From: Marinobacter sp.
Lineage (GTDB): Bacteria; Pseudomonadota; Gammaproteobacteria; Pseudomonadales; Oleiphilaceae
Direction of reading: 5' to 3'
Length of the DNA stretch: 64,000 nt
Assembly (NCBI GenBank): GCA_022565395.1
Contig: JAIUMV010000010.1
Span: forward strand, 1 to 64,000
The translations under genes were made by a program, and so were the position numbers. A model generated the notes under the pieces. That model worked only from the letters and a program-made list of their open reading frames with translations. It ran no database searches and was not told where the DNA came from. Positions 43,647 to 51,234 of the stretch are shown piece by piece (position 1 is the stretch's first letter; each line of letters opens with the position of its first letter).

Positions 43647-44066
43647 TTGAGACTAAAGGACGATGTTTATACGGCTGTGACGCCGGAAAATCTGTGGAAA
43701 GAGTATGCCCTTCATAACGGCCTCTACCGATGCGGAAGACCCTCACACCCAGGCCTGAACAAACTAAGGCTCGGAAAAGATCTCCATTTCGCAAGTGATC
43801 CGTTCATTGAGAACGAACTGATTTTGCCGCACCCTAGGATGGGCATATCATTTGCTGATTCGATAGCGACGCTTCGTCGACAACCCGTCAAAGGCGTAGC
43901 GTGGATTTTGCGCAGAAATCAGATGTTGCCGGAAGGACTTGTGTTTAACTACAAAGATAAATACCACCCTCTCTTAAACGTTTCTCGTCCAACTCCTGCA
44001 CCCAAATTGCTTGAACTCCTGAATGAGCTTTCATCGTTAATGCAGAGCACTGAGATAAGGGTATGA
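43647..44066 (+). CDS. Putative Tse2-like ADP-ribosyltransferase toxin
   Basis: This 139-residue protein starts at TTG 43647 with AGGAG eight bases upstream. RLKDDVYTAVTPEN and LYRCGRPS open it. GISFADSIATLRRQPVKGVAW, then LPEGLVFNYKDK and a C-terminal helix, follow the layout I associate with the Tse2 ADPRT toxin family (a GxSxFD-like turn, a Trp strand, an LPxGL turn). It has no signal peptide. The next gene overlaps it by four bases (ATGA), as a neutraliser would. Base use is AT-richer than the flanks. The family match is by eye; a plain orphan pair is possible. Confidence 0.5.
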   Translation: MRLKDDVYTAVTPENLWKEYALHNGLYRCGRPSHPGLNKLRLGKDLHFASDPFIENELILPHPRMGISFADSIATLRRQPVKGVAWILRRNQMLPEGLVFNYKDKYHPLLNVSRPTPAPKLLELLNELSSLMQSTEIRV

Positions 44067-44377
44067 CCATGAGCAAAAGCTACTTTTTACCAGCTCCGTT
44101 CTTTGATGAAATCAAAGCCTTTGCCGAAAAGGAAGGTTTTCCGGAAGTGCTCAAAGTTGTCTCCAAGCACCAAGACGGCGATATCATTCTTGAATCTTGG
44201 GAAGTGGGTCTGTTACTGAACGTTGCCACCATCTGGCGGTGCGAAGCTGAGTTGAAGTTTCCGTTTTGGGACCCAAACAACCCAAACTACGACCCAGAGC
44301 ATGAAGAAGGTTTCTTCGACGCACAAGAAGATCATTTTGGGAAAATACTGGCCACGTTTTCAGATCTAGGCGAATAG
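44063..44377 (+). CDS. Putative neutraliser of the Tse2-like protein
   Basis: This 104-residue protein is strongly acidic (NYDPEHEEGFFDAQEDHFG) with a helix-rich first half (FFDEIKAFAEKEGFPEVLKV). I do not recognise a family. Its ATG overlaps the stop of the putative toxin gene, and acidic partner proteins often block basic toxins. MSKSY at 44069 is an alternative start. Role inferred from position only. Confidence 0.5.
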   Translation: MTMSKSYFLPAPFFDEIKAFAEKEGFPEVLKVVSKHQDGDIILESWEVGLLLNVATIWRCEAELKFPFWDPNNPNYDPEHEEGFFDAQEDHFGKILATFSDLGE

Positions 44378-45462: not shown

Positions 45463-46065
45463 TTAGCGCTGCTCATAAGCAGTAACCAGCTCCTGCAAGA
45501 AATGCATACCCGCTGAACTCAGGAAGTAGCGGCCTGCGCCAGTTTTGAAAATCAGGTTGCGCTTATCAAGATAATCCAGGGCGTCCGGCAAGCCCTTTTC
45601 GAAACGGGCGGCCCGCAGGATATCGCGGTACTCATCGTCAGCGGCCAGAGCCGCCAGGTCCTCATCATTGAGCCCGGCATCCGGACGCCCCAGATACTCC
45701 AGGTCACGGCCAGTACGGGCGAAGTAGCGGCCAATCAGCAGCAACACCACCTGCACCCGAAAGGCGTTTTCGTCGTGCTCTTCGTTCTCATCGTCACTGC
45801 TTTCTTTCAGGTAGAAGAACGCGCCCTGCTCGTTAAAGCTGAGCTCGCTGCCAAGGTGCTCATAGAAGGTCCGGAAATGACTGAGGTGGTTGTACAGCAG
45901 GTTGTATAGCGGGTTGGCGACCAGCGCACTGCGGTTGCTGTCCCAGGTATCACGCACGACCACCCTGCCCGCCTGAAACTCCCGGTAAATGGCCGCACTC
46001 TGGCTCGGTAGAATCTGGGCAAAGGTGTCTGCGGTTTGCTGCTCTGGGGTATGAGTATCAAGCAT
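45463..46065 (-). CDS. jetB: Wadjet JetB / MksE-like subunit
   Basis: This 200-residue protein has the winged-helix layout of MukE/MksE subunits: NPLYNLLYNHLSHFRTFYEH, FFYLKESSDDENEE, and a C-terminal RYFLSSAGMHFLQELV. It would bind the kleisin JetA in an SMC complex. Its ATG overlaps the jetA stop by eight bases (ATGCTTGA). An earlier in-frame codon adds an Arg/Pro-rich stretch inside jetA. It is last in the operon, an unusual place. Confidence 0.8.
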   Translation of the reverse strand: MLDTHTPEQQTADTFAQILPSQSAAIYREFQAGRVVVRDTWDSNRSALVANPLYNLLYNHLSHFRTFYEHLGSELSFNEQGAFFYLKESSDDENEEHDENAFRVQVVLLLIGRYFARTGRDLEYLGRPDAGLNDEDLAALAADDEYRDILRAARFEKGLPDALDYLDKRNLIFKTGAGRYFLSSAGMHFLQELVTAYEQR

Positions 46066-47491
46066 GCGTTTTCTCTTCTGCGGTAGCCTGGGTGGTAGTC
46101 GCCGCCAGGCGACGCTTGCGGTAGACAAATTGTTGCTGTGGGTCCTGGCCGGTGCTCAGGGTGCGGAAGCGGTTGCTGGTAATCACCTGAAAGCCCGCCG
46201 GCGGGCTGTTGACCAGTCGGTTCAGGGCCGCCAACAAGTCAGGTGCCCGGTAGCCATCGATAAAGCCATCAAGGCGCCCGTGCAGCTCCTGCACCAGATC
46301 TTCAGTTGGGCGCAGCGGTAAGGTTTCCAGCCATTGATAGAGCTTCTGAATACGCTCCACGTCCACCCGGGAGTCTCGGCTGGCGGCGCTCAGGGATGCC
46401 AGCTGTGGCACTTCGGCAGCGCGCTTCAGGTCAGCGAGGCGCAGGGATAGTTCGCTGAACAGCAATTGGTAATAGCTGGTGGAAGCACCAAACGCATAAT
46501 GCTTGGGCCGCTGTTGCGCCCGCAGGCCGATCAGGAACCCGGTGCCCCTGGCAAAATCAGCGCCTTCCAGCCATTTACGGCGCAAGCTGAGGGTTTCGGT
46601 TTCGTCTTTCAGGGTACGCAGCTGGCCGTAAAAATGCTCCATGGCGTTGTATTGCACCATGCCCTGGCGGGTTTTGCGGAGGAAATGCTCCACTTCCTGG
46701 GCAATGGTCTGGATGGGTTTGTACAGCGCGTTCAGGCTGATGGCAGAGCGAAACAGCTGGTCGGCCAGCTCGTGGTGATCGTTGCGCTCAAGTTGCTGCA
46801 CCATGCCATTCAGCGTCTCGAACAGGTTGCTGCCATCCGGCAGGCGGCTGTCCGGGTTCAGAAACACCAGGGTCGGTTTGATATGCCGGTCATACAAGGT
46901 CACGATCTGTTCGAACAGATTCTGCCGAAACTCCAGAAAGCGCTCCGGGGCCCGGCTGGCATCGCCGGACAGGTCCGCCAGTTGAGCGCTGACGGTCTGC
47001 ATGCGCAGCACGTTCTGGCGCAGTAAGCCGATCAGTTGGCTTACCCGCTCATTCAGGTCATCCCGCAGTTCGGTGAAGTCCGGGTCGGCATTATTGAAGC
47101 TGCTGACCTCAAGACGGTTGCGCACATCCCGCAGAGTGACCAGGTGCCCCCGCAGTCTAGCGTCCGTCAACTCCTGATAGAGGGAGGCATTGCAGGCCCG
47201 CATCAGGTTGATAAGGGCATCCTGAAACACCAGCCGCCGTTCACCCTCCGCCTTGACGATGTCGATGACCAGCCCGCTGCGGAACAGGTTGTCCGTATTC
47301 AGTGCCAGCCGCAGCCGGTCCTTGTCGGCTTTGCCAAGGGGTGCGGAATAGCTCAGCACTTCCTGCAACAGGTCGGATTCCAGAATATAGCGGCTTTCGT
47401 GCCGGTCCATCCGCTCAATCAGGCGGAATAGAATCCGTGGATGCTCAAACAGGAGACGTGTGGTATCCAGGGTGCTGAAGCGTTTACTCAT
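46058..47491 (-). CDS. jetA: Wadjet JetA / MksF-like kleisin
   Basis: This 477-residue protein begins MSKRFSTLDTTRLLFEHPRI, then a helical kleisin body (LNERVSQLIGLLRQNVLRMQ; PTLVFLNPDSRLPDGSNLFE), and a C-terminal winged helix, the length and build of MksF. It closes the JetC ring and carries JetB. Start ATG 47491 overlaps the jetC stop by eight bases (ATGAGTAA); the earlier in-frame start lies in jetC. Confidence 0.8.
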   Translation of the reverse strand: MSKRFSTLDTTRLLFEHPRILFRLIERMDRHESRYILESDLLQEVLSYSAPLGKADKDRLRLALNTDNLFRSGLVIDIVKAEGERRLVFQDALINLMRACNASLYQELTDARLRGHLVTLRDVRNRLEVSSFNNADPDFTELRDDLNERVSQLIGLLRQNVLRMQTVSAQLADLSGDASRAPERFLEFRQNLFEQIVTLYDRHIKPTLVFLNPDSRLPDGSNLFETLNGMVQQLERNDHHELADQLFRSAISLNALYKPIQTIAQEVEHFLRKTRQGMVQYNAMEHFYGQLRTLKDETETLSLRRKWLEGADFARGTGFLIGLRAQQRPKHYAFGASTSYYQLLFSELSLRLADLKRAAEVPQLASLSAASRDSRVDVERIQKLYQWLETLPLRPTEDLVQELHGRLDGFIDGYRAPDLLAALNRLVNSPPAGFQVITSNRFRTLSTGQDPQQQFVYRKRRLAATTTQATAEEKTHA

Positions 47492-50426
47492 CCACCGTCT
47501 CCAGCAGGCTGTGCTGGCTCTGGTCCGCCCAATGGGCCAAGGGTTCGCCACCGGTAAAGCCCTCAGCACCGCCCCAGAACACCAGGCTACGCTGGGTGCT
47601 GTAAGGATGCGCGGTACGCATCTGCCCTACTTCCAGATGGCGGCCAACCAGGTAAATCACCTCGGCACTGGCACTGTGGGTGGCGGCAGAGAAGAGTTTG
47701 AAGCCCTGGCTCTGCAGGCGCTGCAACAGCGCAGGTACCTGACTGATATCGACACTGGCCAGCTCATCCAGCACCATGGGGAAGGACAGCCGAATGCCTG
47801 GGTACAGAGCCTCTTTCAGCAAGCGGTACACCAGTTCCAGGTTAATCAGGGCGGTGGTGGAGGTGGACTGGCCCTTCTTGTCCAGGCCAGTGGCGCCATC
47901 CTTGCGGGTACGGTAGGAAATGCCGGTGATCACTTTGTCCATGGTCAGGCGTTTGGTGTCGCCCTGCTCACCAAAGAAATCCGCCACAAACACCCGCAAA
48001 CGGTCATAAAAGGCGTCTGATTGCAGCTGCTTGCCGTAGGGGTCGATATTGATGGCCTCTTCCACCAGGTTGCGGAAGCGTGGGTCGGTATGGATATCTA
48101 CCCGGATTTCCACCAGATCATTAATCCTGACCCCGTCCAACTCCCGGTTCAGGCGGGCTTCGAAACGGGTGATATGCTCATGGTTGGCCTTCAGGGCCTG
48201 GCGGTAACTGGCGACCGTCTCATTGTGTACGGCCACCTGCTCTTCCAGCAATGCCCACTGTTCTGACATACCGGCAAACAGGTCCGCCAGCTGCTTGTAG
48301 GCATCGCGGATGGCACCACTGTCAGGGTTGTCCACTTGCAGGGCCCCTTCCCTGTCCTCGAGCACGCCGAGGTAAACAAACTGCCGCAGGTGATCCAGGT
48401 TTCGGTGGCGCAGGGTTTCCAGCTCATCCAGGTGTGCCTGCAGGCTTTCGAAGGCTGCCGTAGTCACCTGCTCCGCCGGAAGGGGCGTTTCCGCCGTCGC
48501 AGACTTCAGGTGTGGGAAGCGATGCTCCACGGTGGCCAGGCTGCGGGTCAGAGCAATCAGGGCCTTCTCCCGCTCTTCCGTCTGGTCTTTGTCCGCTTTG
48601 GTTCGCGCTGCTTTCTCCTGCACCGCCGTCATTTTCTCGTGTTCAACCCGGGCCTGCTCTTCGATAGCCGCGAGCTGCTCCTGTGCCGCATCACGGTCTG
48701 CCGTGGCATTTCGAAGTGCCGAATTGGCTGCGGGAAAGCTTTGCAAGGTCTCAATATCTTTCTCTAAGCCCTTGATTTCTTTTTCGGTTCGAGTGATCAG
48801 CTGGGGGCGATTCTGGGCCTGTTCCCCTGCCGTGCTCAGCTCTGTCAGCTCTTTCTCCAGACCGTTAACCTCTCCTTGCAGCCGGCGCCGCTGTTCGGCG
48901 AAATCCTCCTGCCGCGCGGCCTGCGTTGGGTATTCCACGTCAAACCAGTCAAAGCCTGCCTCGTTGGCACTGAACAGGCGGGCGAAAGCGGTAATGGCAG
49001 CCTTGCTGTTCTCATCCAGCGGCTGGCCGGGGCTGGCCATCATCAGGCGACTGTCTACAGCCCGCAGCGGTGCGCTGACGGCCTCGTCCAGCTGGTTTTG
49101 CAGCTGCCATTTCTGGCGGCTTTCCCGCTCTGACAACAGCCCAAGCTTACGCTGAATGTCAGCAATCTGCTGGTGAATCCGAGCCTGGCGCAATTCCGCC
49201 TGGGCGGCATTCTGCAGTGCAGCAAGGTAGCCTTTACGGTCTGCCAACTCCTCCTGCAGGATGTCGCCAATCTCCGCCAGGGTCATGTCGCCATAGCCGG
49301 ATACCAGCAACTCCCCTTCCCGCTGGGTTTGCTCGGCCCGCTTCAGGTTGCGTTCGGCAGCCCGTATCTCCCCCTGCAAACCATCTGCCTGTTGCTGTAA
49401 CTGCTTCAGACCTTGTGCCACGTGTTTGAGGGTTTCATTCTGATCGTGCCAGGCGGCAACGGCGACAGACCGCTGCGCCCCGGCGGTCTGGAGCGCTTCC
49501 GTCAGACCGTCTCGGAAGGCGGCGAAATCATGTTGGCGGTGCAGCAGGGTCTGGTATTGCTGGTAATCCCGGTTCAGTTTGTCGAAACGGGGCCGCTCCT
49601 TCTCAATCCGGTTCAGTTGCACCTGCTGCTGTTTCAACTCTTCATGACGGGCAAGGAACTGGTCGATATTGAAGTCAAAGGCATCGTCGGCAAACTTTTT
49701 GTCCGCCTCAATAATACTGGCCACAGCGTTCGCCATAGCCCGGTCATCCGCCTTCATCTCGAACAGCAGTAGTATCAGGGTGCGCAGGGATTGCACCCGA
49801 CGCTCATCCTGCTCTCCCAAGGGCAGCACACTGTATCTTACGGCGTCAGCATTCATCAGTTCGCTGTTGTACAGCATGCTTTTCAGCTTGCCCGGATCGC
49901 TGGTGAACACCGTATCGCGGGACAATTTTTTCAGTGCCTCAGACACCCGTCTAACAGATAGCTCCGGCACCGCCCGACCGATACCATCCTCATCATCACA
50001 GTGCCAGAACAACGGCCGCAGCTGGTCATAGGCGACTGGGACAAATGCTCGGCCGTAACTGAGCTGGCTGCTGTTCTCCCGATAAAGAATCTGACAATGG
50101 GTGCCGGCGACGTTTTCCACCTCCATGATCAGGAAGCTGAACTGGCTGGGGAAATAGTGCTGATAGCTTTCCTCATTGCTGTAAAAGCTGCCGGCACTGG
50201 CGTTGCGGAAGGCGAATTTGACCCGGCTTTTACGGAAGTTGTTTTCCGGCAACAGGAACAGGCGCAGCGAATTCAGCAGGCTGGATTTACCCAGGTTACC
50301 AGGCCCAAGGATCAGGGCATGCTTGTCTACGGGAATCTCCACGTAGCAGAACCCCGCTGAATCCACCAGCACCAGTCGCTTGATACCAAAGGTAAACGGG
50401 CTGTTGCCTGCCGGTTGGTCAGTCAT
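47484..50426 (-). CDS. jetC: Wadjet JetC / MksB-like SMC ATPase
   Basis: This 980-residue SMC protein has Walker A GPGNLGKSSL (Lys47), two long coiled-coil arms with a short hinge near the middle, the signature region KGQSTSTTALINLELV, and Walker B MVLDELASVD. In Wadjet systems the SMC motor extrudes DNA loops, recognises small circular plasmids, and activates JetD to cut. It overlaps jetD by eight bases (ATGACTGA). Length fits MksB. A housekeeping MksB condensin without nuclease is the alternative, but the Toprim gene argues for plasmid defence. Confidence 0.85.
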   Translation of the reverse strand: MTDQPAGNSPFTFGIKRLVLVDSAGFCYVEIPVDKHALILGPGNLGKSSLLNSLRLFLLPENNFRKSRVKFAFRNASAGSFYSNEESYQHYFPSQFSFLIMEVENVAGTHCQILYRENSSQLSYGRAFVPVAYDQLRPLFWHCDDEDGIGRAVPELSVRRVSEALKKLSRDTVFTSDPGKLKSMLYNSELMNADAVRYSVLPLGEQDERRVQSLRTLILLLFEMKADDRAMANAVASIIEADKKFADDAFDFNIDQFLARHEELKQQQVQLNRIEKERPRFDKLNRDYQQYQTLLHRQHDFAAFRDGLTEALQTAGAQRSVAVAAWHDQNETLKHVAQGLKQLQQQADGLQGEIRAAERNLKRAEQTQREGELLVSGYGDMTLAEIGDILQEELADRKGYLAALQNAAQAELRQARIHQQIADIQRKLGLLSERESRQKWQLQNQLDEAVSAPLRAVDSRLMMASPGQPLDENSKAAITAFARLFSANEAGFDWFDVEYPTQAARQEDFAEQRRRLQGEVNGLEKELTELSTAGEQAQNRPQLITRTEKEIKGLEKDIETLQSFPAANSALRNATADRDAAQEQLAAIEEQARVEHEKMTAVQEKAARTKADKDQTEEREKALIALTRSLATVEHRFPHLKSATAETPLPAEQVTTAAFESLQAHLDELETLRHRNLDHLRQFVYLGVLEDREGALQVDNPDSGAIRDAYKQLADLFAGMSEQWALLEEQVAVHNETVASYRQALKANHEHITRFEARLNRELDGVRINDLVEIRVDIHTDPRFRNLVEEAINIDPYGKQLQSDAFYDRLRVFVADFFGEQGDTKRLTMDKVITGISYRTRKDGATGLDKKGQSTSTTALINLELVYRLLKEALYPGIRLSFPMVLDELASVDISQVPALLQRLQSQGFKLFSAATHSASAEVIYLVGRHLEVGQMRTAHPYSTQRSLVFWGGAEGFTGGEPLAHWADQSQHSLLETVDE

Positions 50427-51234
50427 CCAGTATCATCTCCTGTTCCATAAATTTGCCGGTGCTGCTGAACATGGCCGCCAGGGCACCAAACCCTAAATCT
50501 TCCGCCAGGCGCACCGCCTCTGTAAACCTTTCTGTGCTTTTGGGAGCCTTGCGGAACGCTGCGCGCCAGGGCTGCCAATCCTTTGGTTGTACCCAGTGGA
50601 CCTTATCACCCAGTGCTTTAACGAGACTGGCGTAGATGCGCAGCCCACCACCATCGTAATCAAAGGCGGTGTAAACAGCCTGATACCCCGCCAGCCAGCG
50701 CAGGCTGTTCTCGCTGCTGATGCGGGCGCCGCCGCCCAGTACCACGTCGCAGTTGGTCAGGCTGAGGTGGCGCCCTATGCAGTCCGAAGCAAAGGCCAGC
50801 ATGGTTTTATAGTGAAAAAAGTTTTCTTCGTTCTCGATCACCAGAACGGCAGGCTTGGCAGTAAAGCCCTGCTCTGCACCCTGGCGTGAAAGTATCACCA
50901 CATCTGGGCGCAGAGCCTCCTGTTGACGACGATGCTGATGCGTACTATTTCGGTAAACCAGCAGGAAACTGTGGCTGTTGCGCTGCCGATGGGAGTCGCC
51001 CTGGCTGGCCGCCGCCACCCGGTCCGCTGGAGTGATGGCCCGTTGTTCAAGCGTGCGGAATGTCGCCTCATCGAGAATCGCCACCCGCCAGCGTTGGGCG
51101 CTGACTCGGGTGGTCTGGAACAGCTGGCTATGACGCCTGGCAATATCAGCGGGCAGCGCTTTGAGAAAGGCCGCGTAGTTGATGGGCTGGCCAGCGCGTA
51201 TTTTTTGCAAGTAGTCTTTCAAGCGTGGTTCCAA
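50419..51234 (-). CDS. jetD: Wadjet JetD / MksG-like Toprim nuclease, short form
   Basis: This 271-residue protein has a Toprim site: acidic VIENEENF (Glu134) and FDYDGGGLRIYASL (Asp192, Asp194), the metal-binding residues that cut DNA in JetD. Usual JetD proteins are about 380-400 residues with a large N-terminal DNA-binding part; this one is shorter. It starts at TTG 51234 with no Shine-Dalgarno sequence, and a TGA 27 bases upstream rules out an in-frame extension. It is first in the operon rather than last. Function is well supported by its partners. Confidence 0.8.
   Translation of the reverse strand: MEPRLKDYLQKIRAGQPINYAAFLKALPADIARRHSQLFQTTRVSAQRWRVAILDEATFRTLEQRAITPADRVAAASQGDSHRQRNSHSFLLVYRNSTHQHRRQQEALRPDVVILSRQGAEQGFTAKPAVLVIENEENFFHYKTMLAFASDCIGRHLSLTNCDVVLGGGARISSENSLRWLAGYQAVYTAFDYDGGGLRIYASLVKALGDKVHWVQPKDWQPWRAAFRKAPKSTERFTEAVRLAEDLGFGALAAMFSSTGKFMEQEMILDD

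What the first reader, a model, noticed from the sequence alone, without database searches (positions are those of the whole stretch)
45463..51234. Wadjet/MksBEFG-type system in D-C-A-B order with three 8-nt overlaps and a short Toprim subunit
Described Wadjet operons usually run JetA-B-C-D. Here the minus-strand order is jetD, jetC, jetA, jetB; every junction is an 8-base overlap (ATGACTGA, ATGAGTAA, ATGCTTGA); and JetD is 271 residues, starts at TTG without a Shine-Dalgarno sequence and lacks the usual large N-terminal part. It may be a distinct subtype.
Basis: partly seen in the sequence, partly recalled or inferred. Interest (0 to 1): 0.7.

Follow-up and report, generated by a model that had tools for sequence, protein, structure and literature searches.

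The report
Marine Wadjet-like DNA-defence operon clade
The four genes encode a DNA-looping motor (an SMC complex) joined to a DNA-cutting enzyme, of the kind that destroys invading plasmids; they belong to a previously unnamed branch found across marine and halophilic Gammaproteobacteria, in which the cutter has been lost at least ten times in Marinobacter while the motor was kept.

Summary
Four co-directional minus-strand genes run D-C-A-B with three 8-nt overlaps, and D is short. D is a Toprim nuclease of the MksG/JetD fold (AF2 pLDDT 93.7; best solved match C. glutamicum MksG, Z 13.6) with an 85-residue N-terminal part. C is a 980-aa MukB-like SMC ATPase, A a MukF-like kleisin, B an MksE. 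Among 88 distinct relatives no other order occurs (67 DCAB, 16 CAB, 5 partial loci). In a head-domain tree the DCAB proteins form one clade (99/99), sister to Pseudomonas-type MksBEF and apart from Wadjet I and II. PADLOC models barely see it (0 of 38 kleisins). A distinct subtype is therefore supported. No type III sequence could be placed in the tree, and plasmid defence is untested. The overlaps and the TTG start are local Marinobacter traits, not subtype markers. Beyond the finding: in 15 of 54 close relatives D has decayed (at least 10 separate events), yet CAB stays intact under strong purifying selection (dN/dS 0.05-0.13). What remains of D is mostly its last codons, which carry the ribosome-binding site of C. 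This shows a plasmid-defence-type SMC operon repeatedly becoming a nuclease-free SMC complex.

The parts
50419..51234 (-). D (jetD/mksG-like): Toprim nuclease, 271 aa from TTG 51234 or, more likely, 267 aa from the conserved TTG at 51222
   Evidence: JetD_C 21.7 bits, PADLOC JetD1 7.6e-7; AF2 pLDDT 93.7; VIA Z 13.6 to 8b7f CgMksG; start codon comparison
50833..50835 (-). Toprim acidic residue E134 of D, invariant in 108 relatives
50653..50661 (-). Toprim DxD motif of D (D192, D194), invariant in 108 relatives
50437..50445 (-). EQE motif of D (E264-Q265-E266; codons GAA CAG GAG). The same bases hold the Shine-Dalgarno sequence AGGAG of C (50437-50441)
   Evidence: sequence; retained (exact CAGGAG in 14, GAGGAG in one) in all 15 D-less loci
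50419..50426 (-). 8-nt overlap D/C, ATGACTGA
47484..50426 (-). C (jetC/mksB-like): SMC ATPase, 980 aa
50280..50306 (-). Walker A of C, GPGNLGKSS
47748..47777 (-). Walker B of C, MVLDELASVD
47847..47876 (-). ABC signature-like motif of C, KGQSTSTTAL
47484..47491 (-). 8-nt overlap C/A, ATGAGTAA
46058..47491 (-). A (jetA/mksF-like): kleisin, 477 aa
   Evidence: no Pfam or PADLOC family; AF2 model matches MukF 9gm7_C, prob 0.99, E 3.1e-4
46058..46065 (-). 8-nt overlap A/B, ATGCTTGA
45463..46065 (-). B (jetB/mksE-like): KITE subunit, 200 aa
   Evidence: Pfam MksE PF21980, 83.4 bits, cut-off 27

Best explanation
This is an operon of the MukBEF-like/Wadjet (MksBEFG) group and belongs to a separate, so far unnamed clade of it, defined by gene order D-C-A-B, a short nuclease (mostly 260-300 aa) and a short SMC (about 980 aa). 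Likely mechanism: two C dimers, bridged by the kleisin A and carrying B, load on DNA and extrude loops using ATP. On a small circular DNA extrusion runs to completion, the motors stall, and the D dimer is brought onto the held DNA and cuts both strands with its Toprim site (E134, D192/D194, E264/E266). Because D lacks most of the N-terminal part of JetD/MksG, its docking and autoinhibition must differ from Wadjet I. In Marinobacter D is probably made at a low level (conserved TTG start, poor Shine-Dalgarno sequence), while C starts from a strong site lying inside the last codons of D. Shown here: gene identities, fold of D, monophyly of C, conserved catalytic and ATPase motifs, repeated loss of D with retention of CAB. 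Inferred: loop extrusion, circle sensing, plasmid cleavage, and a second role of CAB that does not need D (probably chromosome organisation).
For: D: fold match to CgMksG Z 13.6, topoisomerase VI-A Z 11, PaJetD Z 10.4, model pLDDT 93.7, catalytic residues conserved in 107-108 of 108 sequences. A: MukF is the best fold match. B: MksE. C: Walker A, signature-like and Walker B motifs. Same four genes in 67 of 88 distinct loci. DCAB clade 99/99, sister to MksBEF and away from Wadjet I and II. Published mechanism of the group: PMC10586767, PMC10123090. WYL-domain regulator genes, common beside defence systems (own knowledge), lie next to or near several distant DCAB operons. Only 2 of 72,556 plasmids carry a relative and both are very large (599 and 320 kb), as expected if small circles are cut. 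D is lost in 15 of 54 close loci in at least 10 events while CAB keeps dN/dS 0.05-0.13, which argues for a D-independent use of CAB.
Against: No functional assay exists for this clade. Rarity on plasmids also fits an ordinary chromosomal gene. D lacks the long N-terminal region that in JetD/MksG is thought to grip DNA or keep the enzyme closed, so plasmid cutting may not carry over. Frequent loss of D means that cleavage is often dispensable.
Confidence: 0.72

Rival explanations
1. The operon is mainly a chromosome-organising condensin (MksBEF-like); D is an accessory, decaying nuclease with little role in plasmid defence.
For: D lost at least 10 times with CAB intact and constrained; sister clade includes Pseudomonas-type MksBEF without nuclease; D evolves 2-5 times faster than CAB.
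Against: Most loci keep an intact D with all catalytic residues. Only about half of the family's genomes hold the operon, 76 of 163, while canonical Smc is found in 161 of 163, so CAB is not a core condensin. Orphan D genes occur only in genomes that hold a D-less CAB.
Confidence: 0.2
2. It is simply a Wadjet type I (or II) system with shuffled genes and a truncated JetD.
For: D's best typed PADLOC model is JetD1 (7.6e-7).
Against: C lies outside Wadjet I and II with strong support; no member of the clade in hand shows the ABCD order; D is 259-332 aa in nearly all of 108 relatives; typed controls score 1486-1845 bits while window C scores 20.
Confidence: 0.04
3. It is a type III Wadjet system.
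For: Scattered weak matches to PADLOC JetD3 and JetC3 models (best 1.4e-5 and 5.8e-4).
Against: These scores are no better than those to type I models and far below within-type scores. No type III sequence was available to put in the tree.
Confidence: 0.06
4. An anti-phage rather than anti-plasmid system that uses SMC sensing of circular phage genomes.
For: WYL regulators beside several relatives.
Against: Described Wadjet-group systems restrict plasmids (PMC10586767). No further evidence either way here.
Confidence: 0.08

Closest known systems
Pseudomonas-type MksBEF condensin (NCBIfam NF040857-NF040859)
   Same: Nearest sampled relatives of C together with a short ABCD group; C about 926-950 aa; MksE-family KITE.
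   Different: Order kleisin-KITE-SMC, no nuclease; window proteins reach none of the equivalog cut-offs.
Short ABCD MksBEF+nuclease operons in Marinobacter and kin (L057, L048, L159, L160)
   Same: Short SMC (about 923 aa) and short nuclease (293-332 aa) with the same E / DxD / EQE residues.
   Different: Order A-B-C-D; separate clade (99/98) next to MksBEF.
Wadjet type I (JetABCD; P. aeruginosa PA14, E. coli GF4-3)
   Same: Four components: SMC, kleisin, KITE, Toprim nuclease; D fold (7til Z 10.4).
   Different: Order ABCD; JetC about 1100-1200 aa; JetD about 390 aa with a large N-terminal part; window C has no sequence match in the PDB while a type I control finds JetC at 1e-70.
MksBEFG of Corynebacterium glutamicum
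   Same: D's closest solved fold (8b7f, Z 13.6 over 151 residues) and a matching pattern of acidic catalytic residues.
   Different: mksFEBG order (PMC10123090); MksG has about 130 more N-terminal residues.
Wadjet type II (TIGR02680, L201)
   Same: Four-component SMC-nuclease operon.
   Different: JetC 1392 aa, JetD 447 aa, far branch.
MukBEF
   Same: Kleisin A is closest in fold to MukF.
   Different: MukB 1467 aa (L058), no nuclease.

Membership tests
Wadjet / MksBEFG group | SMC ATPase with Walker A, signature and Walker B motifs and a long central region | tested here: met
   GPGNLGKSS, KGQSTSTTAL and MVLDELASVD in window C, conserved across 111 sequences with variants
Wadjet / MksBEFG group | kleisin subunit | tested here: met
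   AF2 model of A (pLDDT 76, pTM 0.42); top matches are MukF chains, E 3.1e-4, prob 0.99. Sequence families gave nothing.
Wadjet / MksBEFG group | KITE subunit | tested here: met
   Pfam MksE 83.4 bits, cut-off 27
Wadjet / MksBEFG group | Toprim nuclease JetD/MksG with E, DxD and two further conserved glutamates | tested here: met
   VIA Z 13.6 to CgMksG; residues conserved. Pfam JetD_C just below its cut-off (21.7 against 22)
Wadjet / MksBEFG group | cleavage of small circular DNA, plasmid restriction | not testable with these tools
   needs an assay
Wadjet type I | match to typed PADLOC JetA1/B1/C1/D1 models at within-type strength; position inside the type I branch | tested here: not met
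   C 20 bits, D 26.5 bits, B 21 bits, A none; tree; within-type controls 1676-1845 bits
Wadjet type I | A-B-C-D order, JetD about 390 aa | tested here: not met
Wadjet type II | TIGR02680-type JetC of about 1360 aa | tested here: not met
   own genome has no TIGR02680 match; tree
Wadjet type III | match to JetC3/JetD3 models, position with type III | tested here: inconclusive
   only weak model matches in single members; no type III sequence could be fetched
Pseudomonas-type MksBEF | NCBIfam equivalog cut-offs; no nuclease | tested here: not met
   window B 16 bits of 400; no match of C or A; D present

The most novel reading that the evidence does not exclude
A separate Wadjet-group subtype (gene order DCAB, nuclease with minimal N-terminal part) whose SMC core has an additional selected role without the nuclease. 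In Marinobacter the nuclease has been shed at least ten times, usually leaving a D stub that supplies the ribosome-binding site of the SMC gene. This would be the proposed change from plasmid-defence complex to chromosome condensin caught in the act.
Probability: 0.5. Interest if true: 0.8.

Novelty: new variant of a known kind. Interest (0 to 1): 0.6.

Why it matters
MukBEF and MksBEF are thought to descend from Wadjet-like defence complexes by loss of the nuclease (stated for P. aeruginosa MksBEF in PMC10586767), but the known cases are ancient. Here the same loss is recent, repeated and visible in sister species, so what the motor does without the cutter can be tested directly. The clade is also common (about half of the sampled Marinobacter-family genomes) and essentially invisible to the PADLOC models, so surveys that rely on them miss it. 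Its minimal nuclease offers a natural test of what the missing N-terminal part of JetD does.

Tried and rejected
Chance or artefact: rejected (88 distinct loci). Frameshift or truncation of D as the reason for its shortness: rejected, since D is 259-332 aa in all but four of 108 relatives and those four have extra upstream in-frame sequence. The 8-nt overlaps as a subtype mark: rejected (mostly 4, 1 or 14 nt, or gaps, in deeper members). PDB sequence searches with C, D, A and B found no relatives, while a type I control worked. Type III references: the JetD3 model search in the phylum gave only weak hits; the fetched ones checked lie mostly in type I-like ABCD operons, and no type III tree could be made. 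A first TIGR02680 search failed on the server side. Synteny: the neighbouring metallo-beta-lactamase gene is shared with part of Marinobacter, but the operon sits in several places, so a single ancestral site is not supported. Papers naming this clade: none found in the held library. The survey in PMC7617805 probably contains members in its Data S1, which could not be read.

Full report
Observation. D has two in-frame TTG codons near its start. The second (51222) aligns with the start of most close relatives (M-N-D-Y-L), and TTG is also their codon there in most loci, so 267 aa is the likelier length. A weak TTG start for the nuclease is thus a conserved trait of the Marinobacter branch.

What the proteins are. 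B is an MksE (Pfam 83.4 bits). D is just below the Pfam JetD_C cut-off (21.7 against 22) and matches PADLOC JetD1 weakly. Its AlphaFold2 model from 42 aligned sequences is very confident (pLDDT 93.7). The best structural match among solved chains is C. glutamicum MksG (Z 13.6, 151 residues, model 86-271 to 216-376), then topoisomerase VI-A (Z about 11) and P. aeruginosa JetD (Z 10.4). So residues 86-271 are the Toprim nuclease domain, and only about 85 residues stand before it instead of about 215 in CgMksG. E134, D192 and D194 are invariant and E264/E266 nearly so (107 of 108); by spacing they correspond to E236, D279, E349 and E351 discussed for MksG (PMC10123090; this correspondence is inferred, not read from a residue-level structural alignment). 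C has intact Walker A, signature-like and Walker B motifs. A matches no Pfam, NCBIfam or PADLOC family at a meaningful level, but its model is closest to MukF kleisins (prob 0.99, E 3.1e-4; model pLDDT 76, so moderate).

Relatives. Scans found the same operon in Marinobacter and allies, Halomonas, Billgrantia, Thioalkalivibrio, Colwellia, Pseudoalteromonas, Nitrincola, Marinobacterium and Pseudomonas, and on large plasmids of Methylophaga and Photobacterium. Of 88 distinct loci 67 read D-C-A-B, 16 read C-A-B with D missing, and 5 are partial, most of them at contig ends; no other order was seen. D is 259-332 aa in all but four of 108 relatives, those four having extra upstream in-frame sequence. 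In the plasmid collection there are two relatives, both on very large plasmids (599 and 320 kb) and annotated only as hypothetical proteins; in the phage collection none.

Is it a distinct subtype? A head-domain tree of C (40 rows, 429 columns) puts all 22 DCAB rows in one clade (99/99). Its sister is a pair of groups: MksBEF without nuclease (L054 passes the NCBIfam cut-offs for the Mks condensin) and a short A-B-C-D operon with a nuclease of about 300 aa. Wadjet I and II lie on the other side of a supported branch (98/94). The rows for type II and MukB are very long, so the deepest joins are unsure, but the DCAB clade itself does not hang on them. PADLOC type I and II controls score 1486-1845 bits against their own type, whereas window C scores 20 bits and no kleisin of 38 is seen at all. 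No type III sequence could be fetched, and the type III models gave only stray weak matches. The 8-nt overlaps are common in the close clade (D/C 36 of 45, C/A 50 of 54, A/B 45 of 54) but not in deeper members, so they are not a mark of the subtype.

Loss of the nuclease. In 15 of 54 close-clade loci D next to C is gone or reduced to a stub. On the CAB tree this takes 12 changes, at least 10 forced by well-supported branches. Shared loss by sister species occurs in three pairs. CAB has no broken gene in these 15 loci, its ATPase motifs are intact, and dN/dS of CAB is 0.05, 0.06 and 0.13 in D-less sister pairs against 0.04-0.09 in D-bearing pairs. The stub is telling: most of the 15 keep the sequence ATGGA[AG]CAGGAGATGATTC[TC]GG directly before the start of C, and the other two (L088, L095) keep the AGGAG core. 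These bases encode the EQE motif and last residues of D and at the same time are the Shine-Dalgarno region of C. So D decays up to, but not into, the translation start of the SMC gene. The count of changes cannot by itself tell loss from regain, but the stubs show the direction.

Orphan D. Four genomes carry a D away from CAB (three intact, one frameshifted), and all four also hold a D-less CAB. Chance expectation for that, ignoring phylogeny, is 6e-5 over 163 genomes or 0.0015 among genomes with the system. In one case a fused remnant of C/A lies beside the orphan D. The simplest history is two operons that decayed in complementary ways, leaving D to act in trans.

Mechanism. By homology with the characterised members (PMC10586767) the expected action is ATP-driven loop extrusion by C-A-B and cutting of small circular DNA by D. 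That is inference; nothing here measures it. The missing N-terminal region of D means the docking and autoinhibition described for JetD cannot be copied directly. Smc is present in 161 of 163 genomes of the family, so CAB is an additional SMC complex and not the cell's only condensin. Only about half of the genomes have it (76 of 163), and WYL-domain regulator genes lie next to or near several distant members. This patchiness and company speak for defence; the survival of CAB without D speaks for a second role.

Novelty. The parts are known kinds; the clade with this order and minimal nuclease, and its recurrent nuclease loss, were not found described in the held literature. PMC7617805 states that several Wadjet-group members lack MksG and lists operons in a supplement that could not be read, so members of the clade may already sit in that list.

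Noticed in passing
L155 (M. excellens HL-55), L156, L157 (M. oulmenensis), L158: Orphan D genes away from CAB, each in a genome whose CAB has lost its D; in L156 a fused 74-aa C/A remnant lies beside D.
   Followed up: partly
L067/L101, L081/L087, L103/L179, L079/L132: Between sister species D can have much higher (or lower) dS than CAB, as if D were exchanged by recombination independently of CAB.
   Followed up: no
L048, L057, L159, L160: A second unlabelled group: A-B-C-D operons with a short SMC (about 923 aa) and a short MksG-like nuclease (293-332 aa), sister to nuclease-free MksBEF; the SMC of L057 matches no PADLOC Jet model.
   Followed up: partly
L045, L111, L113, L117, L133, L134, L142, L212: WYL-domain regulator genes next to or near distant DCAB operons, in L113 and L117 co-directional and abutting D.
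   Followed up: partly
L211 (Photobacterium damselae plasmid p1_508): Two extra genes, one DUF5406, inserted between C and A.
   Followed up: no
L053 / L129: C-A operon without D in which a 554-aa protein of unknown kind lies directly upstream of C.
   Followed up: no
L099 (Marinobacter similis A3d10): Opposite decay: D intact, C and A broken into several frames (could be sequencing errors).
   Followed up: no
window 43647-44377 +: Two small overlapping genes (139 and 104 aa) downstream of the operon with no Pfam match, laid out like a toxin-immunity or toxin-antitoxin pair.
   Followed up: no
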